NCBI GenBank assembly: GCA_008330645.1
Contig: VLTN01000092.1
Coordinates: 17,553 to 81,552, forward strand
Length of the DNA stretch: 64,000 nt
Direction of reading: 5' to 3'
Source of the DNA: Cafeteria roenbergensis
Taxonomy: Eukaryota; Sar; Bigyra; Bicosoecida; Cafeteriaceae
Made by a program: the position numbers and the translations under genes. The notes beneath the pieces are model-generated. The model searched no databases and was not told the origin of the DNA. It saw nothing but the letters and a program-made list of their open reading frames with translations. Positions 1-62,896 of this stretch are shown here, piece after piece. Within the stretch, counting starts at the first letter, position 1; every line of letters begins with the position of its first letter.

Positions 1-3000
1 GGGCTGTGGCCGCTGCTGGGGGCGGGGGCGGGGGCGGCGGAGGTGGCTGAGACGGCGGCGCGCCGGGGGCCGGCTGGTCGACCCGTCCGGACAGCGAGCC
101 GGTCGGCGGCTGGGCCGGTGCTGGCGGAGGCGGCGGCGGGACCGAGGCGCCCGTCTGGGCGGCGGAGGCGGGGGGCTTGGGCGCAGCGGCCGCAAGCCCT
201 GCCGAGGCGGCGGAAGACGCGGTTGCCGCCGAAGCTTGCGCCGGAGGCGGTGGCGGCGGTGGGGGAGGAGGTGACGAGGTGGCCGCAGGGCCAAGCGCCG
301 ATCTGGGCACTGAGGCCGCGCAGGAGGAGTCGTCTCCGGACAGCGACCACGGCGAGGGCGGGCACGACGACCCGCTGTCGGACAGGGCTGGCGAAGCCGG
401 CGGCGCGCCGATCAGGCTCGCGGACTCGCCTGTCGTCGCCCCGCCGACGCCAGGCTTTCGCTTGCTTGCCGCGGCAAACGCGGCGGCGGCAGACACCGCC
501 CCGCGAGGTGCCGGGTCGGCGCCGGCCGCCCGTTTGCTGTCGTCCCCTACAGAGCCGACGGGGGCGCTGACCTTGTCCTGGCTGCGCGCGCCAGTCTCCG
601 AGCTGGAACCAGCCCCGCCGCCGCTGGCGGCGCCAGCCTTGCTGGGGCCGGCACCACTGAGCGGGTTGACGGCCACGCTCACGATGGCGGCGCTGGAGGC
701 CGACCCTGCCATGGCCGTCGCCTCCTTGGCAACGTCCACGTTGCGTCGGACCGCCGTTACGCAGGCCGACACCGCAAACCCGCCGATGAGAGCGGCGCCA
801 CAGGTGACGACGAACGCGGCCGACAGCCAGTCGTTGAGCGTGGTGCGGAGGGGCTGGAGCCGCACGCCCGACGACACCACGGCGTCCAGGCCGTTGCCAA
901 GGCGCCCCGCGCCTGTGGCGGACAGGAGGAGGTCTGCGCCCGGCGTGGACACCCGCCCCTCCCCGCCCCGGGGAACGGATGTGGAGACCGTGAGCGGGGG
1001 CGTCGCGGCAGAGCCGCCCGAGCTGCTGCTTGCCGGCGAGGTGGCGGTCTCGGGCCCAGGGAACGGAACAGGCCCCGCGGCCGCCACGCCCACGCGCGCC
1101 AGGGACGGTCCCAGAGCGGCGAGCGCGGCGCTTCGGGCGCACTGGCCCGTGCCGGGCGCCGCCGCTGCCGCCAGGTCGGCCAGGGACCCGGAGTGCAGCA
1201 GCGGCAGGGCCAATGCCACGCGGCCAGTGACCCCCGAGCAGGCGGAGAAGGGGCCGTCTGCCTGCGCCGCTGAGGTGAGCGACTGCGCCGCAGCCAGCTC
1301 TGCCGCGACCACCAGCGGCCAGCGCTGTGAGAGGAGGGAGGCGGCGCCCGCCACGGCAGGGGCGCCGGAGCGGGAGCGCCGCAGCGACGAGGACAACACA
1401 GCGCCATCCATCGACGCGCGGAGGGGAGGCGGTGCGGCGGCGCCCGGAAGCATCGTCAGGCTGACTGCGGATCGGTCGCCGGACAGGCCTGGGCGGAGGT
1501 CGGGGCTGCTTCGGAAGCCGAGGGCGAGGCCCGAGTCCCCCGCCAGCACCGCACGGGCCCGCGCTGACGCGGACGTGGAGTGGGGCTCTGTCGGCAGGAT
1601 CGCGGCCAGGAGGAACGCCTCCAGGGCCTGCGGCGGGGCGAGGGGCGCGACGAGGCTGGCGAGCAGCGAGGGCACGCCCGGCGCCGCGTCACCGAGGAGC
1701 AGGTCGGCCAGTGTGGAGCGCGTGACGAGCTGCGCAGGCGCGTTGGCGGCGGCGGCGGCGGCGAGGGAGGGGGCCTGGCCCTCCCACACGCCGACCGGGG
1801 TGGCGTCTGCTGGGGCCGCCGCGGCGTCGATCGCGAAGAGAGCATCGTCGGCTCCGCCGGCCGTGGCGCGGATGGCGGCCGCGGAGTCGGGGTCGTAGGC
1901 AGACGGCCTGCCGTGCGACGAGGCCAGCAGGCGGGGCGGAAGGAGCGCGATGGAGCCCGTGGACACGAGCGACAGAGCGGAGCTCGCGGAGGCGGCGGAG
2001 CTGCCGAGGGCCACGGCGGCTGCGGCAGGGGCGGACACCGCCCCCGTGACGGGGATCGTCACCGACACCCCGGCGGCGACGGCGGCGGCGACAGCGGCAT
2101 CCGTGAGGGACGCGTCGCCGCCGAGGGCGTCGGCGGCCGCGCTGGCCGAGGCGCCGGGTCCCAGTGCGGCTGCAGTCCGCTGAATCGCCGCCGACACCGT
2201 GAGCGCATCCCCCGCCGCTGCGGACAGGCCGGCGCCGACGTCGGCCAGCGCCCGTCCCTCGCCCAGGTTGGCGCTGTCTTCGAAAGTGGCCCCTCCCGCG
2301 ATGAGGGTGGACACGCTGGAGGGGAAGTAGTTGAGCAGAGCCGCCTCTGCCCCGAGCACCGCAACTCGAAGGCGGTTCAGGACTGCCGACGCGGCGCCGT
2401 CTGAAGGGCCCAGCGCTGCAAGGGTGGCTCTGCCGCGGGCGGGGGAGTCGCTCACAGCGAGTCGTGCGAGCAGCAGCTGCGGGGCGAGCGACACCGCGTC
2501 GCTCCACGCGTCCTTGAGCGTGTCGGACAGCTCCGAGGCGGGAAGCGACACCCCCGCCAGGACAGGCACGCGCGCCGGCGGCACAGCCCCCCCCGGGGCC
2601 CCGCCCTGCTGTCGAGCCTCCGCCCAGGCCTCATAGGCGTCGCTCGCTCCCGCGGCGCTGCACGGTCCGTCGAACGCTGCGGCAGCACCGAGCGACGCGT
2701 TGCGGGTGCAGCTCAGCCGGCCGGCGGAGCCCGCCGCCCAGCCAACGAGCGCGTGGAGCGACGCCGCCGCCGGGCGCGCCCCCGCGGACAGCGCCTGCAC
2801 CTGCGACTGCTGGGTCAGGGCGGCGGCGGACGCGGCGAGCTTCGCGGCTGGGCTGTCTGCCACCAGCGTGTCCACGCGACTGGGCGACGTCGGGAGCGTG
2901 CCTGCGCCGCGCGGCGGCAGGGCAGCAGCCCGAAGCGCGACCGCCCACACAGAGGACGTTGCCACCGCCGCTCTGACCGGCTCTGCCAGCGTGACCGTGA

Positions 3001-6000
3001 GGGACGTCGGCGCCCAGCTGACGGAGGACAGCGTCTGCTGGCCCAGCATCGCAGCGGAGAGGCGGGCCTGCCCCTCGGACGCGCTGCCCGCGAGAGGCGC
3101 GGCCGCCGCAGCGGCGGCGGCGTCGTCTCGGGATCGAGCCGCCGCCGCCATGGCCGACGTCGCTGCCAGCGTCCACGCGAGCGGAGGCGGCGCGTTGCTC
3201 AGTGCGGAACTCGACTCAACGGCCACCAGCCCGGCCGCCAGGCCGCCCGCGGAGCCGCTGCCGCCGCCTCCAGCCTGCACGGTCGAGGCGGCCCAGGCAG
3301 CGGGGCCGGCGTCGGGAACGAGGTGCCAGCCCGCCAGCGCTGCGCCGTCAGAGGCCGCTAGGGCCGACCCCGGCTGCGCTGCCGACGGCACGAGTGTGCC
3401 GTCCGCGAACCACGCCACTGCAACGCCGCTCGTCGCAGCCGGGAGGGCGCCGAGCTCGGCTGCTGCCCCCGCCGCGGGGTCAGCGAGCGCCGCCAGCGAC
3501 GGGGTCCCCTGCGTGCCGGCCAGCAGAGCGCCCGCCACGGCCCGCCCGTGGGCCGCGCTCGCGCCGGCCCCAGCGGCTGACGACGAGCCGCCCCCGTCCA
3601 AGGCAGTCGCCTCCGCAGCCGCGCTCAGCACCAGCAGCGCGGACGCATCAACCGCCGCGGACCCAACCACGACCTCTCCGCTCCCAGCCGACGCCTGGCC
3701 GAGTGAGTCCACGCGACACATGACGTCGGCACCGCCCAGCAGCCCCCCTCCCGCCCCGAGAATCGCGTGCCAGTCCCCGCTCTGCCGCAGTGCGGGCGCC
3801 GCTGCCAGCTGCTGCAGCAGCTCGGCGCCAATGCGGCGCTGCACGCCCGCCAGCTCGGACAGCTCAGACGGCAGCGTCGCTGACGGCAGCGCCGACCGCG
3901 CGGCCAGCCGCATGGCCAGGGCCCGTGCGGCCGCAGAGCCGGGGAGGCCCTGCAGCGCCAGCGCCTGGCTGAGGGCGCGGCCGGCGGACACGGAGATGCG
4001 GGTGCTGACGCGCGACGACGGGGCGGCAGAGGCGTTGCTCCAAACGGGCAGGGCCAGCGGAACGAGGAGCTGCGTTTGGCAGGATGAGCAGAGGCTTCCC
4101 GATCCTTCCCACGCCCCAACGGCTGATGCTGCGCTGACGGGGGCGGCAGCCGCAACGACGCACCACCGCGTGGCCGACTTGGCAGCGGCCGCGGCCTCGG
4201 TCCGATCGGCCCCCTGCGCGCCCGCAGCTGGAAGCAGCGCGCCCTGGGCCGTAGAGAGCACGGCTGGCCGCCCGACGACGAGCCCCACTCCCTCCGCCGA
4301 CGCGGCCGCCAGCTGGGCGCGGCCTGCCGCCGCGTGGGTGACATGGCTTGTCGCGATCCCGGCCACGGCGTGGCGCGAGACGGCCTCGGTGGCCTCTCCG
4401 ATGCCCGTCATGGCCCCTGTCCAGGCGAGCCCCACGACTGCAACGGACAGCGCGGTCAGCATCACAGACGCCAGCGTGGCTGCGCGAATGGCGCCCCCCC
4501 CGCCGCCGGCGCCCCCGCCCGCGTCCTTCTTGCCCTGCTTCTTCCCCGCCTTCCTCGACCCGCTCGACGACGCCAGCCGCGGCCGAGGGCGCCCGAACGA
4601 GCCCGCGAAACCGCCGGTGAGGGCCGCCTGGATGGCCACGAGGGAGGAGCCAGCCCCGCGCCCGGCGCCAGCGCCCGCCCCCGCCCCGTCGCCGCCAGCG
4701 CCCGCCCCAGACTTGTCCTGAAGCGCAGCGCCCCCGCTGCCCCCCTCAGCGGAGGCGAGCGCCAGCCCGCCTGCTGCTCGCCTGACCTCCTCCTCCGTGC
4801 CGACCCCGAGCGCCACAAGCTCGCCTGCTGCTCGCCTGACCTCCTCCTCCGCCGCCTCCCCGCGCATGCCCTCGCAAATGGACAGCAGCAGGACGAGCGT
4901 GGCCGCGCACACCCCGATCACCACGCTCACCGCCGCGGGCAAGAGCGTTGTGCGCGCGAGCGAGGCGCGCGGCAGAGCCACGATGACGGTCCACGCTCTG
5001 GGAAGCGGGCTCAGCGCGCTGGCCGCCTCGTCCGCTGCTGCCCAGGCCGCCGCATCGCTGATCGGCCCGCCGGCAGAGCTGTTGCGCAGCGCCACAGTCA
5101 GGGCCTCGGCCACAAGGCTCGTGGCGAAGTCGGACGCCGCCTCCACCCGCGCTCCTGCCGCCAGCACGTCGGGAGAGGGAGACCACCACTCCGAGGATAC
5201 GTCCGCCGAGGCGGCGAGGCCTGCGCTCCACTCCCCCGCCTCGAGGGCGGGCGAGAACGGGGATCCGATGAGGCCGAGGTCGATCGTCGCGCCGAGCGAC
5301 GCGACGGCGCTCACCCCGCCGGCGGAGGCCTCGGCGGGCAGCAGGGCGAAGGCGGCGCTGGGGTCGGCCTTGCTCCCCGCGGTCACGAGAGCGGTTTCGC
5401 GAGGGTACACGCCTCCCGCCACCTCCACGACCCAGGAGGGGGGCGCGAGGTGCCGCCTGACATCGACGCGGGCTCCCGAGAAGCCGGAGGGGCCCACGCC
5501 TGCCCAGACCCCGGCCCGCGCAGTCGCGGCGTCGCGGAGGCTGGTGGCGCCGGCGGGGGCTGTGGCCGCCGCGGGGGCGACCGAGCCCGCAGCCGAGGGC
5601 GCAGCCTGGAACCCGCCCAGCGACCTGGCCGCGGCAGCGTGCTCGCCGGCCCCCTCCGCCCACTCCCAATCCCACGCGCGCGAGCGCGCGGCGCTCGCTG
5701 GCCTGCCTTGCGACGGCACCCCGGCGCGGGCCGCGTCCGGGGCGAGCGCGGACGCGTGGTGCAGAGACGCCTGCGCGTGCGAGCGGGGCTGCGAGCACAC
5801 CGGAACGGCTTCGACGGCGAAAACGGGAACTGGCCACGTCGCCGTCAGCGCGACGGGCTGCAGCGTGAGAGGAAGCGTCGACGTTCCCGTCTGCACCGGC
5901 CCCCCCGCCGACTGCTCCGCAGCGGAGCCGCTTTCCGCCGCCTCCGCACCGATCACAGACGAGGTGGCGTCCGTTGCGCCAGCACCCTCGTCCACCACGT

Positions 6001-7765
6001 CGAGGCATGTCCCCGCCATGGCCTCGGCTGCCGGCACCCCGTGCGCCACCAGCCCGGCGCGCAGCCGAACGGACAACGCCCGCGAGTCCAGCACCAGCGT
6101 CAGCGCGCCGACGACATGCCCTGCCGACGTCGGCCCGGCAGGCAGCGCCGCAGCGGACCCCGGAGCCACCTCCGCCTCTGCCGCCGAGGCGACCACGGGC
6201 ACGGTTACGGCGATGAGGCCCTTGGCCGCAGAGCCCGCTGCGATCGACCAAGCGCTGGCTCCCTCCGTCCACACGGCCAGGGCATCCCCGACTGCGCTGC
6301 CCGGGGCCAGGTCCGGCAGAGCCTGGGCTTGGAAAGCAGTCCGGGTGGTGTGGCCCCAGGTGGCGGAGGCGCCGCTGCCGAGGCCGCGACCTAGCGCCGC
6401 GAGGGCCGCAGCTTGGCCTGCCGCCTCGCCGCGGCCGCCGCTGTCGCCGGCCGCGGCGACTGCAGCGAGGAGCGCTGCCGACACCGCTGCCTGCTGGCCC
6501 CGCTCCGCTGCCGCCAGGGTGCTTGCGCGGCTCGCGGGGTGCACCCCCGGGCCCGCGGGCGGCGAAGTCGCGTTGGGAGGAGGCGCAGCAGCGGCCTCGT
6601 CCAGTTCGCGCAGCAGCGCGCGCCTAGCGTCAGCGGGGGGCCCCGCGTCCGCCGCGGCGGTGGGGGCGGACCCAGCCCCGGGCTGCGGCGCCGCCGCGCC
6701 CCACGCGGGGCTCGTCACCACCGCGGCGGCGGCAGCGTCCGCCAACTGTAGCACGGCGCGGCCGCCGCCTGCCGACTGCGGCGCCCAGGCCGTAACCAGC
6801 AGGCCCGAGGCGGCGTCTGCGGACGACCCCGGCTTCCGTTGCTGCGGCCACGCTGGCTGCGGCTGCGCGGTGCGGGCCACGGACAGGGCCGCCCAGTGCC
6901 GCGGGTCCGAGGCGTCACCGCTGCCCGTCGCGACAGTGGTGAACGACAGTTCGGCGGCGACCAAGGCCCCACTCTCAAGGGTGCCCGTGGCGCCTGCGAT
7001 TGACAGTTGCCGCAGGAGCCACGCTCGGGACGCGCTTGCGTTGGCGCCCGCCCCAGTCGCCGCAATGCTGCGCAATGCCTCGGCAGCGGTCGGAGCATTG
7101 CCCAGTGCAGCCCGCACTAGCTCGCCGATGCTTGCCCCGGTTGGAGTGCCGGGGCGCGCAAACTCCGAAGTCCCGACGCCGTCAGCCGCAAACGCCGCCG
7201 CCCACCACGCCCGACCAGCAGCCGGCCTGGCAGCGCGACGAACCATTGCGGCCGCAAAGCGAGAGAGGGGCGCCGCTGCCTCGTCCTCGGCGGCTCGGCC
7301 CAAGGCGCCCAGGCCAGCTGAAGCAAGGTTTCCGGGGCAGCGCACAATTCCGCTCAAGAGCACTCCGCTGTCGGTCCCGTTGTGGCCAGCGCAGTGCTGG
7401 AACACGCTTCTCAGCCAGCGCATGGCCGACACATTGGAGGGTTGGCCGGGCGGGCTGGCGGGCGCGGAGGCGCCGAAGTCCGGCGCGGCTGCGGGGGCGC
7501 CTGACAGCGCAATCGCCGCCCAGCGAGCCAAAGTTAATCCGTCCGACGCCGCCTCGGCCGCCCAGGCCCGGGTCTCGGCCGCAAGGAGCTTCGCTGATGA
7601 GTTGGTGGCCAGGATCGCTTGTTGGTGCGTCGCGGACGCCGCGGCTACCCACCCCAGGAAGGCCGTGGCGCCCACTGCGACCAGAGTTCCAAAAACGCCC
7701 AGGGTCCCGGCCAGAGCGGCCCTCCTGCGCGCAGGGGAGCAGCAGGCCGCGCGCGGCTCTTTCAT
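1..7765 (-). CDS. Giant multi-pass membrane protein, receptor-like (3' partial)
   Basis: Reading from ATG at 7765 down to base 1 the frame has no stop (2588 codons) and it continues off the left edge. The protein has two tandem TM-ectodomain-TM units. TM1 (about residues 16-40, a signal anchor after an Arg-rich start) leads to a ~900-residue ectodomain and TM2 (about 938-962). A ~130-residue cytoplasmic stretch follows, with an 18-residue direct repeat and a KKQGKK basic patch. TM3 (about 1095-1118), a second ~1190-residue ectodomain and TM4 (about 2308-2335) come next, then an Ala/Ser/Pro-rich cytoplasmic tail. The end of ectodomain 1 (AWTVIVALPRASLAR running into TM2) resembles the end of a dCache sensor domain. 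A catalytic domain may lie beyond the window. I do not recognise the family; a receptor role is inference. The plus-strand frames across this region (for example 4797-7871) are low-complexity shadows. Confidence 0.75.
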   Translation of the reverse strand, partial: MKEPRAACCSPARRRAALAGTLGVFGTLVAVGATAFLGWVAAASATHQQAILATNSSAKLLAAETRAWAAEAASDGLTLARWAAIALSGAPAAAPDFGASAPASPPGQPSNVSAMRWLRSVFQHCAGHNGTDSGVLLSGIVRCPGNLASAGLGALGRAAEDEAAAPLSRFAAAMVRRAARPAAGRAWWAAAFAADGVGTSEFARPGTPTGASIGELVRAALGNAPTAAEALRSIAATGAGANASASRAWLLRQLSIAGATGTLESGALVAAELSFTTVATGSGDASDPRHWAALSVARTAQPQPAWPQQRKPGSSADAASGLLVTAWAPQSAGGGRAVLQLADAAAAAVVTSPAWGAAAPQPGAGSAPTAAADAGPPADARRALLRELDEAAAAPPPNATSPPAGPGVHPASRASTLAAAERGQQAAVSAALLAAVAAAGDSGGRGEAAGQAAALAALGRGLGSGASATWGHTTRTAFQAQALPDLAPGSAVGDALAVWTEGASAWSIAAGSAAKGLIAVTVPVVASAAEAEVAPGSAAALPAGPTSAGHVVGALTLVLDSRALSVRLRAGLVAHGVPAAEAMAGTCLDVVDEGAGATDATSSVIGAEAAESGSAAEQSAGGPVQTGTSTLPLTLQPVALTATWPVPVFAVEAVPVCSQPRSHAQASLHHASALAPDAARAGVPSQGRPASAARSRAWDWEWAEGAGEHAAAARSLGGFQAAPSAAGSVAPAAATAPAGATSLRDAATARAGVWAGVGPSGFSGARVDVRRHLAPPSWVVEVAGGVYPRETALVTAGSKADPSAAFALLPAEASAGGVSAVASLGATIDLGLIGSPFSPALEAGEWSAGLAASADVSSEWWSPSPDVLAAGARVEAASDFATSLVAEALTVALRNSSAGGPISDAAAWAAADEAASALSPLPRAWTVIVALPRASLARTTLLPAAVSVVIGVCAATLVLLLSICEGMRGEAAEEEVRRAAGELVALGVGTEEEVRRAAGGLALASAEGGSGGAALQDKSGAGAGGDGAGAGAGAGRGAGSSLVAIQAALTGGFAGSFGRPRPRLASSSGSRKAGKKQGKKDAGGGAGGGGGAIRAATLASVMLTALSVAVVGLAWTGAMTGIGEATEAVSRHAVAGIATSHVTHAAAGRAQLAAASAEGVGLVVGRPAVLSTAQGALLPAAGAQGADRTEAAAAAKSATRWCVVAAAAPVSAASAVGAWEGSGSLCSSCQTQLLVPLALPVWSNASAAPSSRVSTRISVSAGRALSQALALQGLPGSAAARALAMRLAARSALPSATLPSELSELAGVQRRIGAELLQQLAAAPALRQSGDWHAILGAGGGLLGGADVMCRVDSLGQASAGSGEVVVGSAAVDASALLVLSAAAEATALDGGGSSSAAGAGASAAHGRAVAGALLAGTQGTPSLAALADPAAGAAAELGALPAATSGVAVAWFADGTLVPSAAQPGSALAASDGAALAGWHLVPDAGPAAWAASTVQAGGGGSGSAGGLAAGLVAVESSSALSNAPPPLAWTLAATSAMAAAARSRDDAAAAAAAAPLAGSASEGQARLSAAMLGQQTLSSVSWAPTSLTVTLAEPVRAAVATSSVWAVALRAAALPPRGAGTLPTSPSRVDTLVADSPAAKLAASAAALTQQSQVQALSAGARPAAASLHALVGWAAGSAGRLSCTRNASLGAAAAFDGPCSAAGASDAYEAWAEARQQGGAPGGAVPPARVPVLAGVSLPASELSDTLKDAWSDAVSLAPQLLLARLAVSDSPARGRATLAALGPSDGAASAVLNRLRVAVLGAEAALLNYFPSSVSTLIAGGATFEDSANLGEGRALADVGAGLSAAAGDALTVSAAIQRTAAALGPGASASAAADALGGDASLTDAAVAAAVAAGVSVTIPVTGAVSAPAAAAVALGSSAASASSALSLVSTGSIALLPPRLLASSHGRPSAYDPDSAAAIRATAGGADDALFAIDAAAAPADATPVGVWEGQAPSLAAAAAANAPAQLVTRSTLADLLLGDAAPGVPSLLASLVAPLAPPQALEAFLLAAILPTEPHSTSASARARAVLAGDSGLALGFRSSPDLRPGLSGDRSAVSLTMLPGAAAPPPLRASMDGAVLSSSLRRSRSGAPAVAGAASLLSQRWPLVVAAELAAAQSLTSAAQADGPFSACSGVTGRVALALPLLHSGSLADLAAAAAPGTGQCARSAALAALGPSLARVGVAAAGPVPFPGPETATSPASSSSGGSAATPPLTVSTSVPRGGEGRVSTPGADLLLSATGAGRLGNGLDAVVSSGVRLQPLRTTLNDWLSAAFVVTCGAALIGGFAVSACVTAVRRNVDVAKEATAMAGSASSAAIVSVAVNPLSGAGPSKAGAASGGGAGSSSETGARSQDKVSAPVGSVGDDSKRAAGADPAPRGAVSAAAAFAAASKRKPGVGGATTGESASLIGAPPASPALSDSGSSCPPSPWSLSGDDSSCAASVPRSALGPAATSSPPPPPPPPPPAQASAATASSAASAGLAAAAPKPPASAAQTGASVPPPPPPAPAQPPTGSLSGRVDQPAPGAPPSQPPPPPPPPPPAAATA
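4768..4851 (-). repeat. In-frame 54-bp direct repeat in the membrane protein
   Basis: The same 30 bases occur at 4768-4797 and 4822-4851, 54 bp (18 codons) apart. On the minus strand both copies encode EEEVRRAAG, in the cytoplasmic loop just after the second transmembrane helix. It looks like a recent in-frame duplication of a short charged helix. Confidence 0.85.
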
Positions 7766-8612
7766 GTCCACAGCAGAGTCCCTGGGGCGAGACACCGGCG
7801 GAGCACCGAGCTCGGCGTCCGCAGGTGCGGCCCGCTGGCCGGGCAAGAGGTCGGCCGCGGCAGAGGTCTAGCCAGACAGGACGCGCACGCGGCGTGCGTT
7901 TGACAGCCGCCGGGATTCGGCGAAGCTCTCGTGCAGCCTCCATGCCGCCCCGCCCTGGGGCTGCACGGCTGCTCAATCCACAGCAACGCTTGACCGGCCT
8001 GACCACGGAGCGGGGTTTTGCAGAGGGGCAGAAGAAGCTCGGAGCCAGCTACCGGCTGTTTCCGGGGCAGGATCGGGCCAACGCTGGCCGGCAGCTTCGC
8101 CGCGCGTCGAAGCCCAGCCGTCTGCGTACAGCCGGCCAGAATCGCCACCGCAGCGAGCTTCGCCAGACCTTCGTGAGGTTCGGCGGGTGTGTTCGGTCCC
8201 CGAATCAATCTGGTTGGCGATCATGACCTGGAACACACTCTGGGGAAAACGCGCTCGTGTGACTTCGATTCGGCCCGGCAACGGAGCAAAACGAGGGACT
8301 ACACGGCAGAAGCACGCAAAAAAGACACGAAAATAATTTCTCTAATAGGAGGAGGCCGCGCCGCTCGCGTCGCTCGGCGACATTAGTTGCTGGCCCCAGC
8401 GCTGGCCCAAAACGCTTCCCGAGCAACGCGGCTCGGCGGTTGACGGAAGGCGCGAGTCCAAGCGCAGCGCTGCCCGCATGGAGCGCCGGAGAAGCTAGGA
8501 GGGCCGGGAACGGAGAGCTCGCAAATGGATCCGGCGACGGGTGTGGTTCCGGTGCCCCCAAGGCGCCTGGGCGGACGACACTGGCCAGGAGCTTGCGAGA
8601 TCACGTGCGTGC
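7766..8612. other. Intergenic, upstream of the giant membrane protein gene
   Basis: This 847-bp stretch lies between the stop of the secreted-protein gene (8613) and the ATG at 7765, both on the minus strand. It should contain the 3' end of the first and the promoter and 5' leader of the second. I saw no conserved protein sequence in any frame. A relatively AT-rich patch is at 8290-8350. Confidence 0.5.
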
Positions 8613-10083: not shown

Positions 10084-13000
10084 CTACAACTCCGTTAGCA
10101 CAAGCCGCAAAGCTGCGGCCCACCTGTTGCACTGCTCGGGCGACGCCGCGAGCAAGTCTAGGGTGCGCCCGCCCCCGACAACAGACAGGCACGCGGCCGT
10201 TTGCGTCCCAACGCGGTCGAGCTGTCGCGAGAACACGGCAGTGGAAGCTCCCTGCACCACGCGAGAGCTGCTGCTCAAGTCGATGAATCCGGGCGTCGCC
10301 GCCAGGTCTCCAAGCTTGGCGCTGCGCCACCGTAGACGAGCCCCATCCAGCCACACGAAGCGCCGGTGCGGCCTTCCGCGCCTCCCGAACTTGAGCAGCA
10401 CAGCTCCCCGGCACAGCAGCTCGCTGGCCGCAGCCAGCGCCGCCGCGCGCCGCGAAGGCGACATCGGCCCTCCTCCCTCTGCCCCTGGCGCCGCTGGCAC
10501 GCCTTGGGAGGGGTTGCCGTCTGATCCACTTGTCGCCACACGCAAGGCAGGCGCCTTTGGGGGCGAGCGCTGCCAAAGCGCCTGCCTGAGCCGAAACCCA
10601 GGTGACGAGTGGCGCTCGGGCAGCGGAGCGGCTTGGGCGCCCCTGCCAGGCGACGGGCTTGTGCCCGCCAGAGACCGCTCGGCGGGAGCCACTCCAGCAT
10701 GCTGGGGTGCTGCCATGCCTGGCGGCGGCGGCCCTGCCGCGTCGATGAGCTCGGCGGCGGTGCTGAGCGCGCCTGCTTCCTGTCGGCCGGGCCGCTCTGC
10801 GGGGAGTTCCGCGGGCTGCTCCGGCCCTGGCGCCTCGCCACGCGGCGAGGACTCGCCGCCTTGGCCGCCGAAGAAGGGAGCGCGCGGCGTTGCGGCGCCG
10901 TCGTCCGCGGCGTCCGAGCAAGGCGAGCGGCCCCCTCGAGCTCGCTGGGTCAGCCGCAGCTCAAGGCCCGGCGGGGCCAGGCCGCTGGCCGGCGACGAAC
11001 CGGCTCGCGCCCCGCCGTCCGGCCCTCGGGCGGCGCTTCCCGTCCCGCCGCCCTCGACGCCGGATCCGTCCGGCTCGCGGCGAGTGGCCGATGCCGCGCT
11101 CGTAGGTGAGGCGCCGGCTTCGAAGCCGCTGCCAAGGGGGCGCGGCGCCAGCCTTCTCGACGCCGAAGCGCCGACGCTGCGCCCAGGCGAATCCGCCACC
11201 AGACCTCCGCCAGAGCCGCCTGGCCATCGCCGCGGCTGCCTCGCCTCGCTCGAAACAGCAGCGCCAGCGGTCACGGCAGCGGCGTCATCGCCACCACCGG
11301 CAGCCCACCCGCGCGCATAGCCCCGCACGCGCCCGCCCTCCGGAAGCGCTGCACCCCCCGACGTCGAGTCGGAGCCTCCCGACACTGCGCGGCTTCTCGC
11401 GGCGCCGCCTGCTTCGGCCAGGTCCGCGGGCTCGCCCGCCATGTGTTCCGGCACCCGGCCCGCCGCCGCGCGCGACCCGCCCGGTACGTCGTCCCGGCCA
11501 GGGAGCAGCCCGCGCCGCGCCAGTTCTGCAATGGCTGCCGTCACGCTGTCCATGCCAGCGACCCGCCGGCTCGCGCTCGAGCCAGCTGTCGCCACAGGGC
11601 GCGCTGCCGCCACAGGGCGCGCTGCCGCCGCCGCGGGGCCCGCTGCCATGCCCAGGCCCCTGCAGAGCTGGCGCAGACATCTCTCGACCGCAACCAGGCC
11701 TGCGACCGGGTCCTTGGCAGCGCCAGCGTGGGAGCCCGAGGCAGACAACTCTGCCCCGAAAGCGGCACGACCGCGCAGCCCTTGCAGGCTCACCTCGCCC
11801 CCGCACATGGCGCCCGCGCTGGACGCCACGGCCACGGCGGCCGCCTGGGCGCGGACAAGGTCTGCAGCGCTCTCTGCCGCTGCGAGCACCGCCTCCTCGA
11901 CGCTGAGGCCGGGACGGGTCGCGAGAGCGCACCGCGCGACGAAGGTGGCCACCTGCCAGCCGCGGAGCACGCCCCTGTCCGCGGGCGACGGCAGCGGCGC
12001 GGCGGTCTCCGAGTGCCTCCTGCAGGGCGGCTCTGCCACGCGATCGACCAGCGCAGAGGCGGCGAAGAGCGACGCGAGGGCGCGAGGTGAGAGCCGCTCA
12101 GCAGTGCCGTGGGCTGGGTTGCCTTCGGGGTGGTCGGAGCCGGGGCCGCGCGGTGACGGCGGCGCGAGCAGGCCAAGTGCCCGCGCCAGCGCCAGCGCCT
12201 CCGGCCAGGTGACGGCCAGCACAGGGGCTGGCGGCGCGGGCCGAGCGGCGGCCGCTGGCCGTCCGCGCAGGGCCCCGCTCCCGCCGGCCGGGGCCCATGC
12301 GGAGGCCCTGCCGCCCTCGGACCCTGCCTGAGCGGAGGCGGCGGCCGGCCTGGTCCCCGCTGCCCCCCCGTGGAGGCGGCCTAACCCGTCGCTGTCGTCG
12401 TTGTCGCTGCTGCTGAGGGCGAAGCTGTCCCATGCCGAGCCTGCGGCCAGCGGCACACCGTCCGCGCTGCGCGCACCGTGCCCCCGAGCTGCTGCGCTCC
12501 GCACCGAGCGCTGGTCGGCGGCTGAGGCGGCTGGGCCGATCCGCCCGCTCGCCCTGGCGGCACGCAGCGCGTCGCCCAGCAGAGACGATTCGGAGGGGAC
12601 CGCTGCGCCCGGTGCCCCGCCGGCCTCCGTCCCAAGCTCTGCCGCAGCCTCTGCTGCTCGGATCGCGGCGGGGCCCAGGCCAGAGTGACGCAGCCAGTCC
12701 GACGCGCCGGCCGCTCGCGCCACTGCCTTGCGGCGAACCGAGCGGCGGAGCAACCTGCCGTCCGCATGCCCCTGCCCGCCGCTCGGCAGAGCAGCGCCTC
12801 CTACCCAGGCCACCACCGCCGCGGTGGCCGGGACGAGGCGTCGGAGGGCTGCGCCCCAAGCGGCGCCGCGCAGTTGCAGCGTGGCAGCGGCCCATGCCTG
12901 CGGGTCGATGCGCACGGCGCTGCGGAGGACGTGGCCACAGACGAGGCGCCGAGCGGCGCCGTCCACGGACGCCGCGACCGCCGCAGCCGCGGAGGCAACC

Positions 13001-14726
13001 ACTCGCCCGGGCACCACGGCGCTGGTCGACGGCAGGCGGCTGAGGTGCGAGGGTACGAGAGAGGGCGGCGCCCGGCGGCGGTGCCGCGCTGGGGGGGCGG
13101 GGGGCGCGGCAGCGGCGGGGGCCCACGGCTCAGAGCTCCCCAGGGGCCGGTCGTGCCGCGTGATGTGCCGCCAGGGGCTGCGGGGCAAGGCGCGCGAGCC
13201 TGCGGCCTCGGCAGTGACGCCGGCTGCAGGCGGGCGGGTTGCACCGGCAGCGCGTCGCTGGTGGTGGCGGCGGCGGCGTGCTCCTCGGCCCAGGCTGCCC
13301 CCCCCCGGCAGAGCAAGGGCACTGAAAGGGTCGGCGTCCGGGTGGAGGCCGTCATCCCAGTCTGCCACGGAGGCAATGGCTCTGCCAGCAGTCGAAGCCG
13401 GCCGCAGCAGGGCTCGGCTCGCGAGCCTGGCTAGCAGGCATAGAAAGCCTTCAAACGTGAGCGACGCGCCCCCCGACGCGCGCCGGCGCCTGGCAGCGGC
13501 GGCGAGGGAGGCTTCCGCCGCGGCGCCCGTTGCGGCCTTCAGCGCGGCGCCGGCCCAGCCCGGGGCCAGGGGGTGCGACGGGGTGCCGTCCCCGCCCGCA
13601 GACGTCGCGGCGGCAGCGACGCGAAACTCAATGGCCAGCTCTGCCGGCGTAACTTCGAAAGGGCAGAGCTCACCCGCAGGCAGTGAGGCCTGCGGCTGGT
13701 GTCGAGCGGACGCGGCTGACCGGGTCGTCGACGCCCGGCCCAGAGGCAGGGGCTGGGCCGCGGCGGGGCGAGGGGGCGGCCGGCGGCAGGGGTCGAAGCC
13801 GCTTGAGTCCGGAAGCAAGAGGCCGCAGTCGCCGAGGAGCTGCGCGGCGGCGGCAGCGGAGAGCGTGGGGCCGGCGGCCGCTGCGATGGCGCCGTCGCTC
13901 TGGGCCGACCGGTGGCTTGCGAAGGCGGTCGAGGCGGGGGGTGCGGGGGCAGGGGCGGCAGCCGCCTCCCTCCCGGCATAGTGCGCGAAGACGAGCCACA
14001 GGTCCAGCTCCCACACCGCGAGCGGCGCCGGGACGAGGCCAGCTGACTGCACCGGCGGCTCAACCGCCGACGCCGCAAGGGCCAGGGTCGCGAGCGACAC
14101 TCGGCGGGGCCCGCCGGAGCCGGTGTCGGTCCCAGAGCCGGAGTCGGGGCTGGTTCCTTGCGCCTGTTGGGGCAGGTGGCTGGGGGTGCCGGCTGCCTGG
14201 GCAGCCCAGAGGGCCGCGCTCTCAGCCACGGCCCCCCTGCACCACTCCAGCGTCGGGCCGACCGCGCGACCCTCGCCCAGTGGCGCGCTCTGCTGCTGGC
14301 GGCCATGCGCTGGATCTGCTTGCTGGGCCGGCGGCCCGCCTCTGGTGTGGGCCACGTCGTCAGCCGAGCCGGCCCGGCCGTCTTCCGCACGGCTGCTTTC
14401 AGGAGCGCCGTCTCGAAGCGCCGACACGCGCCACGCAGCTGCTGCATCGGCCACCGCTGACTCGACCACCACGCCACGGGGAGCGAGGCCGAGGCCGATT
14501 GCCGCTGGCACCCCGTCAGGCCACTCCCACGCCCTGCCGCCATGCCAGCTCCTCCACCTGCTGGCCAGACCATGGGACGGCGAGAATCCCGTCCCCGACT
14601 CTGAGCGCGCCCACGCCGGACGCACCTTCACCGGTGCAGGCAACAGCGACAGGGCGTGGAGAGACTGCGCCACCGAGGCGACTGAGGCGGCGCGATCGCT
14701 GGCCGGAGGGGCTCTCCCGCCCGCCT

Positions 14727-14764
<38 letters not shown>

Positions 14765-15939
14765 TCGTCGGCGCTGGAGCGAGCAGCAGCCTGAAAGGCA
14801 GACCTACCGGAGACTGGCTGAGCAGGGCGCGGCGCCTTGACCGCCCAGCCCTGACGCGGGGAGGGATTCGAAACGACGTCGCTTGCGCCCTCGCCGCCCC
14901 AGCCGGCCGCAGCCGGTGTCCTGGGGGTCACACCGAAACGACCCTCAGGCTCCCCGCCTGTGACCCCTCCCTGGCCCCGCCAGGCATTGAGCCGGCCAGA
15001 GGCTGCCCACGCGTCGCCAGCCCACCCGGCCGGGCGCGGCTCTGCGCGGCGCCCGGGGAGGCGGATGTAAAGCCGCAGCGCCTGCTCAGGGCCAGGCGCT
15101 GCGTGCACGCTGGCCTCACTGCTCTGCCCGTCCTTCCCATGGGGAGCGTCGCCCGCGCCGCTTGCGTGCTCGCCGTGGGGGCCTACGAGCCCTGCCACGG
15201 CCGTGATATGCATGTGCTCTGGCAGAGCCGTGCCTTCGTCGTCGCAAAGCACTGCGCCCTCCAGCTGGGCCCCGGCAACGCCAATCAGCGAGCAGGCGTC
15301 TCTCAGTGCGGCCTGCACCGTGAGCCCAGCGGTGATTTGGAGCGACACGCAAGGCGCCCCCACGACGGGACCCAGCGCACCGCCCCAGATGGCGACTTGG
15401 GCCGCCCGAGAGGCGCCACCGCCGGCCTCAGGGCAGCGAGCGGAGTCTGCGCCAGTCGCGCGTGCTGGGGCCGCGCCTCGGCCGCTGGCGGGCCGCACAA
15501 CCAGCCGGGGCATGTAAGCGTCGACTGTGTGCCGCCGCTCTTGCACTGCGGACACGGCGACTCCGTCGTCCAGGCAGAAGACGAAGGGCCGCGGCACACC
15601 TGCAACTGCTGCATCGATGGCAGTGCGGGCGGCCTGCAGCGTGTCATGCAGTGCGACATGAACGAATCCCAGCACCTGCCCGCCCCAGAGCTCAACAGCA
15701 ACGAGCTCTGGATCTGCCAGGTTGCGCGGGGGAGGAGGAAGAAAAGCGGGGCAAGGGCGGGGTCACGACAGCAGTTGCGCACGGGCGTTGGCGGCGCGCC
15801 AGGCTTGCAAGCTTGTGGCCGCCGCTGTGCAGGCATTTGGCCACGCCTCAGCATCCCCGCGACATGAAGTCTCACCGTCTCGAGCTGTGCCCTCCTCTGC
15901 GAGGCTGCGGAGGGACTTGGCCGGGCGCAGCCCTCTCAT
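10084..15939 (-). CDS. Large PH-domain protein with two N-terminal ubiquitin-like modules
   Basis: Two exons: 15939-15876 and 15713-10084, joined in phase across a 162-bp intron (donor GTGAGA, acceptor CAG after a pyrimidine tract). The codon split is G|AT, giving TARDDPELVAVELW. 1897 residues. Near the N-terminus there are two short modules, about 22-80 and 110-210, with the pattern strand-helix-FVFCLDDG-RLVVRP, resembling a ubiquitin-like or PB1-type fold (inference). A 12-Gly run lies near residue 345. Residues about 590-790 hold a helical region with LWLVFAHYAG and LTFEGFLCLLARLA that looks like a divergent EF-hand-like calponin or TPPP-type module. Long Ala/Ser/Pro-rich stretches follow. 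A C-terminal PH domain (about 1790-1895) has VLLKFGRRGRPHRRFVWLDG and ends with the invariant Trp of helix 1 (NRWAAALR). A lipid-binding scaffold role is inferred only from the PH domain. Confidence 0.75.
14731..14763. repeat. (GCC)n trinucleotide run
   Basis: Eleven consecutive GCC triplets. On the minus strand they encode the poly-Gly run in the PH-domain protein. Length polymorphism is likely. Confidence 0.95.
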
Positions 15940-49773: not shown

Positions 49774-51401
49774 TCACTGCCTCACCGCGGGGTCGCCGCT
49801 GCCGTCTGCAGCGACGCCCCGGCCGCCGCGCGAGTGTTTCTCTGCCGCAGCAGTGACAAGGCGGACGAGCGAGGCCGCGCGGCGCACTGCCTCCTCCTCG
49901 TCGGCGCTGGCCGTCTTTCCTGGGCGAAGGTTCGCGGTGCCAGGGAGCGCGGTCACGGACTCCACGGCGTCGTAGTACTGGAGCAGGGACGGGTTGAACT
50001 CCGTGCGCGCGAGGAGCTCCACCTCGGCCTCCTCCGCGGCAACGCGCGCCTCCAGGCGAGCAAGCTCCGTCTCGTAGGCAACGGCCGGGTCGGCTGCGGT
50101 CGCAGTGGCAGCTGCCCCGCGCCCAACGGCCTGGGAGGCGCCCGAGGCCCCCGCCGACGCGTCCAGCGCCTGGGCGCCTTCGGACAGCACCCCGCGGTAG
50201 AGGGACCGCCTGCGCCAGCGCATGACCGTGTCCGCGAAGGAGGAAAACCCGAGCTCCCTGTCTGCCAGCACCCACCACCAATACGCGCCGACGGAGGCGA
50301 CCGCGCCCGTGGCGTAGGTCACGGGCTCCATGATGTCCCAGGAGAGGTAGTCGAAGGCGAGCCACGCGTACACGCCCACGCCAGCGGCCATGCTGGCGAA
50401 GCCGAAGCGGTTGCTCCAAAGCGCCCAGGCGCCCGCCTCCCGCTCAACGAGCGCGCGAGCGGCGCGGCGGTCGGCAAGGCGCGCCCGGTGCCCTGCAAGC
50501 TCCGCCTGCTTCCGCTGCCTCTGCTCCCTCACAAAGGCCTTGTTCGGGCCCTCCAGTCCGAAGTGGCCGTAGAGCGCGTCAAGGGCCTCCTCGGGCTTGA
50601 GGAAAACCACGTCGCGGAGGTGGGGATCAGGGTGGCGGTGGAAGTGAAGCAGCACCCCTGCACGGTGCAGCCCACGCAGCAGATCGCGGCCCTCGTCTGG
50701 GGGCACCCCTGCATCGGCAGCGAGGTTGAGGAATTCGGCGACTCGAATCGTGCGCTCTGGCCGGGCACGCACCGCCTTCGTCACGCGGAGGTACGAGCCG
50801 CGACGAACGACCTCTTCGAGCGTGAGCACGCCCCCCTGAGTGTCCGAGCGAGTGGGGACCCACGGAAGCGGAGACAACCGAATGGTGCGATGATTGCCAA
50901 GCCGAACCAGGAACCCGCCTGAAGCCAAGTCGCCAATCGTTCCGAGCCTGTCTGCTGGGGTGCCGTCGTCGAGCGCAACCTCAGCGCCCTCGAGCCCGGG
51001 CTCGGCCCTGAGCAGCTCCAAAGCCGAGGCAACCGTCGTGTCTGCGACTCACGCGTCGCCATGTGGGAGAGGGGGGAGAGATGGGAGGCAAAGGAGGATG
51101 GTTCGGGGCGGGGAGGGCGAGAGAGCCCGCTGCTGCCGGATCGCGTGCGTTCTTGACGAGCTTGCAACCATCGCCGCAGCTAACCGACTCCTAGAGGGAA
51201 GGAAATGTCCTCGCTGTCGCCTGGCTTCACCCTCAGCCTGAGCACAACCTGCCCTCGTGCGTTGACGTGGAGCGCGCGGCGCTCGACTGCAGCGTCTTGC
51301 TGGTCGGCTAGCTGGCTCGAGCTCCTCGCCGGCACCAGCGGCGACGGGAGCGGGAGGGCACGAATGACACGGTCGCAACTCGAGCGTGCTCTGCGCAGCA
51401 T
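49774..51401 (-). CDS. MCU: Mitochondrial calcium uniporter pore subunit (MCU)
   Basis: Exons 51401-51185 and 51041-49774, codon G|AC across a 143-bp intron with donor GTTAGC (weak) and acceptor CGCAG. 494 residues. Exon 1 gives an N-terminal presequence (MLRRARSSCDRVIRALPLPS) and the start of the MCU N-terminal domain (LHVNARGQVVLRLRVKPGD). The join restores SFPLGVDTTVASALELLRAE. The pore region has TM1 (ASMAAGVGVYAWLAFDYLS), the selectivity motif WDIMEPVTY (about 306-314) and TM2 (ATGAVASVGAYWWWVLADRE), followed by a coiled-coil (ARLEARVAAEEAEVELLART). MCU forms the Ca2+ channel of the inner mitochondrial membrane. Asp and Glu of the DIME motif are present, so the pore should conduct. No MICU or EMRE gene is in the window. 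Confidence 0.95.
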
Positions 51402-52402: not shown

Positions 52403-55400
52403 ATGCGCGTCATCGCCGCCAAACGCCCCGCCTTTTGGCTTGCGCTCTTAGTCGCCATCGGCCTGCTATCGGATTCGGCTGATGCATGGTGAGACCATGG
52501 CGCGCTCCCCTGCGATGGTGCTCCTTTGCCCAAAGCCAGACCAGACCGCGTGCGGGCTTGAACCGAAACCGGTGCCGGACTGCCCGAACCCTCGATGCCC
52601 CCCCAATTCCATCTCGGGCCAGCGGCTTGGGACGCCCCCTTCCTGACCCGGGGAGCGCCCTCGATGGCAGCAGCACCTACTGCAAAGCTCATATGCTGCT
52701 AGGGCCCAGATTTGCGGGCGTTCGTCTGCGGGTAATCGCTTGCTTTGCCTTCGGCTCAGGTCGAGCTAGCCGTCGAGCCGCACTCTGACCGCTTGCCTCG
52801 CAACCGCAGGGGCCGCCGCCGCCGCCGCCGCGCGCCCGCTTGCTACAGATGCGGAGTCGGTGAGCAGTTGCGCAGCCGCTCGGGCACCCCGCCGCCTCGG
52901 CCTTGGCGATTTTCGCAATCGCCTTGGCGGGAGTCAGAACCTTCGGGCCATCCCGTCAGACACCGGGTCTGACCGCCGCTTCTCGCAGGCTACTACTACG
53001 CGGCCTGTTATTCGTGCGGGAGCTGCGGTGCTGGCTACTACCAGCCGTACGGGTCCCACCAAGGCGGATGCTACACTTGCAGCGCGGGCTCGTACTCAGG
53101 CGTGCGCGCTGGGACTTGCTCAAGTTGCTTGGCTGGGTATTACTGCCCCACGAGCGGCATGGGGTCTCCTTACGCTTGCCCTGCCGGGCGGTACACGAGC
53201 TGGGCAGGCGGAACGTCGTGCAGCTACTGCTACGCGGGCTACTACTGCCCGTACTCCGCCTCTCGTTCGCCCACTCCGTACCAGTGCCCCGCTGGTCGAT
53301 GGTCTTCGTCCGGATTCTCTGCGTGCACATATTGCACTGCAGGCAGGTACGGCTCCGCAGGCGCCACGACGTCTTCGTGCTCTGGCGCATGTCCTGCGGG
53401 TTCGTACTCGTCGGCAGGGGCAAACACGTGCACAAACTGCCCTGCTGGTCGCTTCACTGCATCGACAGGTCAGAGCTCTTGCACGGGATATTGCGCTCCC
53501 GGTCGCTATGGCGTCGCAAGCACCCGGGCCTCCTCCTCGCTGTGCTATGGCGAGTGCTCCGCCGGATACTACTGCGTTGCTGGGTCCACGTCACCGACGC
53601 AGTTTGCTTGCGGATCCGAGACAGTGTACTGTCCGGCAGGCTCCGGCGCTCCGCTTGGCGTCTCACCAGGCTACTACGCCTCAGGCGGTACCGTAACAAC
53701 ACGCACTTCGCAGACGCCGTGCCCAGGCGGCCAGGGAAAGTTCTGTTCCGGAGGCCAGATCCTACCTTGCGGCCCCGGCCGCTACGGGTCGTCAGCTGGG
53801 CTGCCGTCCGCAGCCTGCGACGGCGCTTGCTCGCGTGGCTACTTCTGCCCATCCGGGTCCACGTCCAAGTTTGCATCCAAGTGTGGAAGCGTCGCGGTGT
53901 ACTGCCCTGCAGCGGCGGGTGCTCCGACAATTGTCCCTCCAGGGTTCTATTCGGGCCCGCTTGCCGCTCCCGAGGACGAGCGGTACGAGGCTTTGCCATG
54001 CCCGACGGGCAAGGCTTGCCAGAATGGCATCATCATCGAGCCTCTGAATTTCTACACCTGCCCAGACGGCGAAGCCTCCCGAGACGTGCTGGAGTTGACG
54101 GTGAACGCGAATGCCGGAAACGCCATGGCAGCGAAGCTCCAGGGTGGGGCGACGGGAACGATTGCGTACTCCATCACGTCGCAGTCGTGGAACCAGGGTT
54201 GTGTGCACGGTGACAGCAACGTGTTTACCATCAGCAGCTCGGGGCAGCTCAGCCTGAACTCTCGGAGCATCAAGTACGACACCTGCACCTCATTCGTCGT
54301 TAACGTGCGGACTTCGTTTGGCGCCTCTGTTGCGGACTGCAAAGTCACGATTTCGGTTGTCGACGTCAACGAGAAGCCGACGGCCCTGTGCGGAAATAGA
54401 GAAGTCAACGAAAAGGTGATTGCCGGCACCAAGGTCGGCCTGCCAATGTTGGCAACAGACCCTGACAGGCAACAGTCGCTGATTTGGACGATCACGTCGC
54501 CCACTTCCAGCCCGTTTTCGATTGCACCTTGCGATGGACAGGTCCTTGTTCGGAATGGAGGCGCTGCGCTCGATGCAACGGAGAAGTCTTCCTACTCCCT
54601 CACTCTCGCAGTCACCGACGATGGCGAACCGAAGCTCTCCGCAACTTGCTCAATCGTCGTGACGGTCCGCAACGTGAACGAGCCGCCGTCGATGACGTCG
54701 CCTCGCTTCGTTTTTGGCCTGTTCGAGAACATGCCAGCTGCCACTGTGGCGGGCACCGTGACCGCCACAGACCCCGATGCAGACAGGCTCGTGTACGCAT
54801 GGGCGGCCACCGACTCCCCAGACCATTTCGCGCTCGACAGCCAGACCGGGAAGGTTTCCATTCGGCCTGGCGCGTCCATCAACTTCGAGGCCAAGGACAA
54901 GTATACGTACACTGCGAAGGTGTCCGACCCCTCTGACAACGTCGCCCAAGCTCAGGTGGTCATCAACATCGCGGACGACGCGGATGCGCCGACGATTTTG
55001 GACGTGTCCGCCATGTCAGTGCCGGAGCTCGCCGCGGCGAACACGCTTGTCGGCCGCCCTCTGACTGCAAAGGACGAAGACGCCAATGACCAGCTGACTT
55101 GGTCGGTCACGTCGGGGTCCACGTTCGGCATCAACCCCCAGACTGGCCAGCTCTTCGTGTCGGGTAACGGCGGGGCAAACCTCAACTTCGAGGCGGCAAC
55201 GACGGCCATCGTCGCGGTGCAAGTTACCGACTCGCACTCCCTGACGGCGTTCAAAAGCATCACCGTGGACGTGACCAATGTGAACGAGGCGCCCACCATG
55301 AGCCCGTTGACCAGGTCTGTGAAAGAGAACGCTGCCATCGGGGTGGGCGTCGGAGGTGCCGTGGCTGCCCAGGACGTGGACGCAGGCACGATCATCTCCT

Positions 55401-61400: not shown

Positions 61401-62896
61401 TGGGGAACTCCGCCAATGACAAGGCCGTCTTCGCGGTCGGAGCGACGTCGGGCGTTGTCAGCCTGCTGCAGAACGCCCTCAACTTCGAGGCCAAGGCAGC
61501 GTGGGAGGTGGGCATCACGGCCACAGACAACGGAGTGCCGTCGCTCTCCAAGGAAGGAAAGGTGCACATTGCTGTCGAAGACGTGAACGAGCCGCCGGCC
61601 TTGCTGACCGAGTCCCTCAGCGTGAGCGAAACGGCCGGTGCAGGATCGCAAGTCGGAAGTGCCCTGGTCATCACGGACCCCGATCCCATGGACTCGCACG
61701 TTGTGAGCATCGTCGGGGGAAACGGGCCGAGCGAGGACTGGTTCCGCATCGACGGCACCAAGGTGGTGCTGGGGGCCGCTCCACTGGACTTCGAGGGCGT
61801 GTCCGGTTCGAACAGGTTCTCCCTACAGGTGCGTGTGAGCGACGTTCCCCCTGCAGGCAAGCTGCCTGGGACCCTAGCCGTCACGAAAACGGTGGTAGTC
61901 TCGGTCACGGACGCCAACGAGCGGCCCGTCATCGCCGATGCTGAGCGCCAGGTCGAGGAGAACTCGCCAGTGAACACGCCGGTCGGCGACATCCTCCCCG
62001 CGTCCGATCAAGACGCCGGCCAGACCCTGTCATTCGCAATCACGAGCGGCAACGATGACGGCATGTTCAAGATCGACGGGTGCTCGGGGCAGGTCAAAGT
62101 CGCCCGTGCCGCGCTCGACTTCGAGACGACGAAGGAGTACTCACTGCAAGTAACAGTCACGGACGATGGCGGCGTCGTGCCAGGGCCAGCGCGCCTGTCT
62201 GCCAGCGCCGTGTTGACAATCCGCATTGTCGACGTCAACGAGCCGCCCTCCCTGAAGGACTCCGCTGCCACTGTCGACGAGAACTCAGCAGTGGGCACGG
62301 CCGTGGGGAGTGCTCTTCGAGGCGAAGACGTGGACGCCGGCTCGGTGCTGTCGTATGCGATTGCGAGCGGCAACGTGGGCCAGGCGCTTGCGCTCGACTC
62401 GAGCTCCGGAGTCCTGTCCGTGCAGCGCGCAGCGATCGACTTCGAGACCACGGCCAAGTATGTCCTCAACGTCACCGTGACGGACAACGGAAAGCCCAGC
62501 GGTCCTCCTCTGTCGTCGTGGGGCATTGTGACCGTCACTGTGAGGGACATCAACGAGGCGCCCGTCATCGAGGACCAGCAGCGGTCGGTCAACGAGAACT
62601 CGCTGGCTGGAAAGCTCGTCGGCTCTTTGCTCGCCGCCAGCGACGTGGACGCAGGGAACTCGCTCACATTCGCCATCGTCGGGGGCCCGGACGCCGCTGC
62701 GTTCCTTGTTTCGCCTGTGGGTCAACTGACGGTGGCCACTGGCGCCGCGCTCGACTTCGAGACCCGGAGCAAGCTCTTCGTCACGGTCCGAGTCACAGAC
62801 TCTGACAAGGTCCGCCCCCTGTCCGACGAGGCCACGATCACGGTTCAGCTCGTGGATGTCAACGAGGCCCCCACTCTGGCGGAGCACACACCGTAG
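52403..62896 (+). CDS. Giant secreted or surface cadherin-repeat protein (reading frame breaks at 62890)
   Basis: Exons 52403-52488, 52810-52859 and 52989 onward (introns 321 and 129 bp; donors GTGAGA and GTGAGC, acceptors CAG; phases 2 and 1 agree). Exon 1 is a signal peptide (MRVIAAKRPAFWLALLVAIG, then a DSADA cleavage region). Exon 2 adds an Arg-rich linker and YRCGVG. From about residue 46 to 340 the protein is Cys-rich with repeated CxxCxAGYYC and CPAGRY units, like GCC2/GCC3 (ephrin-receptor-like) modules. At least 26 cadherin repeats follow, each with an ENSPxG-type strand, DxDxGD/DPDAG, FExK/DFE and a DVNEAP linker (the DxNDN calcium motif in variant form). 3347 codons are readable to the stop at 62894-62896, but repeats continue in other frames beyond it. 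A role in adhesion or cell-surface coating is inferred from the domains. Membrane anchor and C-terminus are not in the window. Confidence 0.9.

What the first reader, a model, noticed from the sequence alone, without database searches (positions are those of the whole stretch)
1..7765. Giant two-module membrane protein with no recognisable family, running off the left edge
On the minus strand the frame from ATG 7765 to base 1 has no stop in 2588 codons and is bounded by hydrophobic helices that pair up as TM-ectodomain-TM twice. The junction AWTVIVALPRASLAR before TM2 resembles a dCache-to-membrane boundary. This would fit a very large sensor whose output domain (for example a cyclase or kinase) lies beyond the window. 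Two successive ~900- and ~1190-residue ectodomains in one chain is an unusual plan.
Basis: partly seen in the sequence, partly recalled or inferred. Interest (0 to 1): 0.75.

Follow-up and report, generated by a model that had tools for sequence, protein, structure and literature searches.

The report
Giant four-pass orphan protist membrane protein
This is a real, very large gene of the marine flagellate Cafeteria whose protein appears to cross the membrane four times and to expose two huge loops of unknown family; it may be a surface receptor or adhesion protein, but the suggested kinship with bacterial sensors could not be confirmed and the gene's far end lies outside the window.

Summary
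A 2,588-codon frame runs from ATG 7765 to the left edge on the minus strand and is coding: its codon usage matches Pfam-backed genes of the window (r = 0.975, against 0.70-0.87 for the other five frames). Four helices stand out as membrane-spanning (22-42, 944-964, 1095-1115, 2313-2333), giving TM-loop-TM twice, probably with both ends cytosolic. N-glycosylation sequons are enriched in the first large loop, not in the second. The window is nuclear DNA of Cafeteria roenbergensis/burkhardae: its uniporter ORF agrees with FNF31_01418 at 374 of 375 aligned residues. Pfam, NCBIfam, PDB sequences and capped protein-database searches gave no relative. The dCache idea is not established: a short strand before TM2 matches a dCache profile above shuffles, but the non-Cache receptor Tar scores as high and the signal vanishes without the membrane columns. 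AlphaFold gave no usable model. Best reading: a lineage-specific four-pass surface glycoprotein, receptor or adhesin, with a Ser/Pro-rich cytosolic tail. Any output domain lies beyond the window; the frame of the last ~90 codons is uncertain.

The parts
2..7765 (-). open reading frame of 2588 codons (P0001), 3' end beyond the left edge
   Evidence: coding by codon usage
7640..7702 (-). TM1, residues 22-42, preceded by the basic stretch ARRRA
   Evidence: insertion-energy minimum 0.96, hydropathy peak 1.87
4946..7639 (-). first large loop (ecto1), residues 43-940: 6 N-glycosylation sequons, 4 cysteines, 24 Trp
   Evidence: 6 sequons against 1.13 expected, 0 of 5000 shuffles reach it
4958..4993 (-). 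strand WTVIVALPRASL (residues 925-936) just before TM2, the only dCache-like stretch
   Evidence: short, specificity not shown
4874..4936 (-). TM2, residues 944-964
   Evidence: insertion-energy minimum -1.0
4764..4865 (-). in-frame direct duplication, copies 54 nt apart, in the loop after TM2 (EEEVRRAAG twice, residues about 968-1001)
4490..4867 (-). middle loop residues 967-1092, basic (K+R 12.7%), no Trp, Cys or Asn: probably cytosolic
4421..4483 (-). TM3, residues 1095-1115
   Evidence: insertion-energy minimum 0.25
821..4423 (-). second large loop (ecto2), residues 1115-2315: 2 sequons, 8 cysteines, 17 Trp
   Evidence: sequons not above chance here
767..829 (-). TM4, residues 2313-2333
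   Evidence: insertion-energy minimum 0.76
2..754 (-). tail residues 2338-2588, Ser/Pro/Ala/Gly-rich, with proline runs at 2499-2508, 2543-2548 and 2574-2583; frame of the last ~90 codons uncertain

Best explanation
A lineage-specific, four-pass plasma-membrane glycoprotein of the bacterivorous flagellate Cafeteria. Both ends and the short middle loop lie in the cytosol; two very large loops (about 900 and 1200 residues), each anchored in the membrane at both ends, lie outside. Contact of the loops with a ligand, prey cell or surface would be passed through the paired helices to the basic middle loop and to the Ser/Pro-rich tail, which would recruit cytosolic partners. Shown here: a coding frame, four predicted TM segments, sequon enrichment in the first large loop. 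Inferred: the topology as a whole, location on the cell surface, receptor or adhesion role, and every signalling step.
For: Coding frame. Four TM segments separated from the next candidate by 1.5 units. Basic residues on the expected inner side of TM1 (3 against 0) and TM3 (2 against 0), slightly at TM2 and TM4 (3 against 2). Sequons: 6 in ecto1 against 1.13 expected (0 of 5000 shuffles), 6 of its 8 Asn being in sequons; for both loops together 8 against 2.57, p 0.0016. Cysteines number 4 and 8 in the two loops, 0 in the middle loop. Organism: C. roenbergensis/burkhardae; in C. burkhardae signal transduction and adhesion genes rise in stationary phase (PMC7852580, passages read).
Against: No relative of known function and no fold. 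43% and 50% of the two loops are low-complexity by a SEG-like measure, against 4-32% in five Pfam-backed segments of the window, and their content of F, I, L, M, V, W, Y, C (21% and 24%) is at or below that of those segments (24-34%), so parts may be unfolded. Sequons in ecto2 are at chance level, and 17 of the 19 Asn of the protein lie in the loops anyway, so absence of sequons elsewhere says little. Positive-inside bias is slight at TM2 and TM4.
Confidence: 0.45

Rival explanations
1. A very large bacterial-type sensor: Cache-like ectodomains with a catalytic output (histidine kinase, cyclase) beyond the window.
For: TM-loop-TM layout; strand match placed where a dCache ends, above 150 of 150 shuffles, and not produced by TM2 alone (12.2 with a TM2-only profile); histidine kinases are enriched among stationary-phase genes of C. 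burkhardae (PMC7852580, passages); the Cache models were made without eukaryotic sequences because domain boundaries there are unclear (PMC4822843, passages), so a divergent eukaryotic Cache could be missed.
Against: No Cache hit in Pfam for four pieces at E 10 or in NCBIfam at E 10, though HMMER's filters drop most matches above about 0.1; score no higher than about Tar's and within shuffles when TM columns are removed; loops about 4 and 5 times the dCache length; output unseen.
Confidence: 0.2
2. A mostly structural, low-complexity coat glycoprotein, held to the membrane at four points, without sensing function.
For: A, G, P and S make up 55% and 56% of the two loops and 43% and 50% of them is low-complexity; sequons in ecto1.
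Against: Ser plus Thr is only 15% and 17% of the loops, low for a mucin-like chain (recalled judgement); 24 and 17 Trp; Ala richness is partly general here, 12-26% in nine other ORFs of the window against 27% in this one.
Confidence: 0.2
3. A gene-model artefact: the frame joins exons of two neighbouring genes, or true introns lie inside it.
For: No protein of 442-1407 or 1423-4529 residues matched among the candidates scored, although the same organism's uniporter is in the database; C. roenbergensis has 1.67-1.89 introns per gene on average (PMC6972860, passage); codon usage is unclear in the last ~90 codons.
Against: The frame is the best of six in 19 of 20 blocks of 400 nt; the duplication in the middle loop is a multiple of three.
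Confidence: 0.15

Closest known systems
dCache_1 chemoreceptors and kinases (PF02743)
   Same: extracellular region held between two TM helices; a Trp-containing strand just before TM2
   Different: dCache_1 has 240 profile positions, these loops 898 and 1201 residues; no Pfam match; the local match is short and its specificity not shown
Four-pass proteins with both ends inside and two outer loops (tetraspanin- or claudin-like topology; recalled)
   Same: number of TM helices and inferred topology
   Different: outer loops there are tens to about a hundred residues (recalled), here 898 and 1201; no sequence relation found
Formins with an FH1 proline-rich region (recalled)
   Same: proline runs of 6-10 in the tail
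   Different: no FH2 domain within the window's part of the protein, and the frame of the proline-rich end is uncertain

Membership tests
dCache_1 (PF02743) | match to the family profile | tested here: not met
   0 Pfam families for the whole protein at E 1; for four pieces at E 10 only one match, phage sheath, E 0.042, below its cut-off
dCache_1 (PF02743) | profile similarity over the whole domain | tested here: not met
   14 columns, probability 8.7%, score 29.8; held-out members score 137-267 over 288-294 columns, 6 of 6; Tar 28.9; TM-free score within shuffles
dCache_1 (PF02743) | region flanked by two TM helices | tested here: met
   for both modules, by prediction
dCache_1 (PF02743) | two PAS-like folds | tested here: inconclusive
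   AlphaFold without relatives: pLDDT 35.1 (residues 1-972) and 41.3 (455-600)
receptor kinase or cyclase | cytosolic catalytic domain | not testable with these tools
   would lie beyond base 1; no genome held
formin | FH2 domain | not testable with these tools
   no Pfam family in the 251-residue tail; beyond the window unknown

The most novel reading that the evidence does not exclude
A new class of eukaryotic surface receptor in which a TM-giant ectodomain-TM unit occurs twice in one chain, with a proline-rich cytosolic tail that couples prey or surface contact to the cytoskeleton. Because no protein of 442-1407 or 1423-4529 residues matched among the candidates scored, the full protein may exceed 4,500 residues.
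Probability: 0.12. Interest if true: 0.6.

Novelty: new member of a known kind. Interest (0 to 1): 0.3.

Why it matters
Cafeteria is a bacterivorous flagellate and a giant-virus host (PMC6972860, abstract passage); its surface proteins are candidates for prey recognition and virus attachment. A real, very large orphan membrane protein is a candidate for such a role, but nothing here shows it.

Tried and rejected
Internal duplication of the two modules: alignment score 315 against shuffle means of 289 and 307 (maxima 352 and 364), so none detectable; the C-terminal ends score 38 against 39.6 (170 of 300 shuffles reach it), the N-terminal ends 68 against 55.9 (25 of 300): not convincing. Viral contigs: 9 stretches matched a pattern, none a relative. 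PDB by sequence for residues 440-965: four matches at E 0.81-0.93, chance. tRNA and Rfam scans of the window: nothing. Both protein-database searches with this ORF scored only the candidates sharing most words (7980 and 7995), so a distant relative may have been missed among Ala-rich proteins. AlphaFold of residues 1-972 and 455-600 was too poor for a fold search, so none was run. A first dCache profile read the minus-strand loci on the wrong strand; it was rebuilt from 29 of the 39 loci L082-L120 (10 with partial matches left out beforehand: L086, L087, L090, L091, L106, L108, L114, L115, L116, L118). A dCache paper search found nine papers, eight listed, only listings seen; passages of one of them were read later (PMC4822843). 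The formin idea for the tail was considered and not adopted, because the coding frame there is uncertain.

Full report
What is there. The minus-strand frame 7765-2 has 2588 codons and no stop. The window is 71.2% GC, so long open frames are cheap and coding had to be tested. With codon frequencies from Pfam-backed domains of the window, this frame is the best of six in 19 of the 20 blocks of 400 nt covering 1-8000, two of them narrowly. Over its whole length it scores 0.14 bits per codon against -0.79, -0.57, -0.42, -0.02 and -0.85 for the others; in all seven Pfam-backed segments tested the sense frame also scores best (0.11-0.49). Its synonymous codon usage correlates 0.975 with six of those segments (cadherin left out), the other frames 0.700-0.874. 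A synonymous-only score agrees (0.41 against at most 0.31) but does not favour the frame in the last ~90 codons, where the sequence is proline-rich (0.03 and 0.24 in frame, against up to 0.62 and 0.63 in other frames). So the gene is real up to about residue 2,500; its last stretch in the window is open to doubt.

Whose it is. The ORF 49777-51021 (mitochondrial calcium uniporter) agrees with FNF31_01418 of Cafeteria roenbergensis at 374 of 375 aligned residues, the one difference being the TTG start codon read as Met; the two differ otherwise only in gene model. The published genome of this species has about 70% GC and 1.67-1.89 introns per gene (PMC6972860, passages read). Strain E4-10 has since been renamed C. 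burkhardae (PMC7852580, passages read). The window is therefore nuclear DNA of this stramenopile or a strain very near it. No whole genome is held for it, so the gene cannot be followed past base 1.

Anatomy. By insertion energy (recalled scale, my own weighting) four segments stand apart: 944-964 (-1.0), 1095-1115 (0.25), 2313-2333 (0.76) and 22-42 (0.96); the next is 2.5. Hydropathy alone also lists three Ala/Val-rich segments inside the loops, which the energy scale ranks far lower. The N-terminus and the middle loop (K+R 12.7%) are basic, the large loops less so (5.8% and 5.0%); the tail is not notably basic (6.0%). The 8 N-X-S/T sequons lie in the large loops, as do 17 of the 19 Asn: 6 in the first loop (1.13 expected, 0 of 5000 shuffles), 2 in the second (1.41 expected, not significant). 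The middle loop carries an in-frame duplication with copies 54 nt apart. The tail has three proline runs of 10, 6 and 10 residues in mixed codons; among nine other ORFs of the window one run of six or more was found.

What it is related to. Nothing was found in Pfam, NCBIfam, PDB sequences, viral contigs, or the protein database for lengths 1423-4529 and, with a query joined from five complex pieces, 442-1407; both database searches scored only about 8,000 candidates. Since the same database holds this organism's uniporter, either the annotated protein is longer than about 4,529 residues, or it is not annotated in one of those lengths, or the database lacks it; which of these is unknown.

The dCache question. 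I built a dCache_1 profile from 29 bacterial proteins. Module 1 matches it with score 29.8 at W925-L936, where a dCache would end, above 150 of 150 block shuffles (maximum 22.3), but over 14 columns and with probability 8.7%. Six held-out members score 137-267; the two highest, L083 and L085, are close kin. Among nine E. coli control proteins Tar scores 28.9 at its TM2, through TM columns of the profile, and CpxA 25.2; the other seven score 13-20. With TM columns removed module 1 scores 15.6, within 100 shuffles (maximum 19.4); with TM2 columns alone it scores 12.2, so its match needs strand and TM together. Module 2 shows nothing (16.8). AlphaFold without relatives gave pLDDT 35.1 (residues 1-972) and 41.3 (455-600), which allows no statement on the fold.

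Interpretation. I read the protein as a lineage-specific four-pass surface glycoprotein with two giant outer loops, most likely a receptor or adhesion protein of a bacterivore. The four TM segments are well supported by prediction; function is inference. A Cache sensor with an enzyme output is a rival at 0.2, a structural coat protein at 0.2, a gene-model artefact at 0.15. One paper search for Cafeteria burkhardae with transmembrane, receptor and protein gave one paper, on channelrhodopsins (listing only); within that search no description of this protein was found.

Noticed in passing
window 53102-62896 (+): A 3264-residue ORF with 23 cadherin stretches, Cadherin_4, Big_9 and a sub-threshold ephrin-receptor-like match, in a stretch of clearly lower GC (58.6-66.1%): a giant cadherin-like protein in a unicellular stramenopile. 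Cadherin is named among stationary-phase genes of C. burkhardae (PMC7852580, passages).
   Followed up: partly
window 49777-51021 (-): The published model FNF31_01418 leaves out 40 residues (278-317), but the frame is open here and a metagenome relative (P0002) keeps the stretch with 35 of 40 residues identical: possibly an over-predicted intron.
   Followed up: partly
window 49777-51021 (-): Uniporter ORF with a COR-A match next to the MCU domain; Pfam lists both for all six database relatives found.
   Followed up: no
window 10087-15675 (-): An 1863-residue ORF with only weak PH-domain matches, below their cut-offs, near its C-terminus and a composition like that of the finding's protein.
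   Followed up: no
window 4797-7871 (+): A 1024-codon frame opposite the finding's ORF; codon usage favours the minus strand there.
   Followed up: partly
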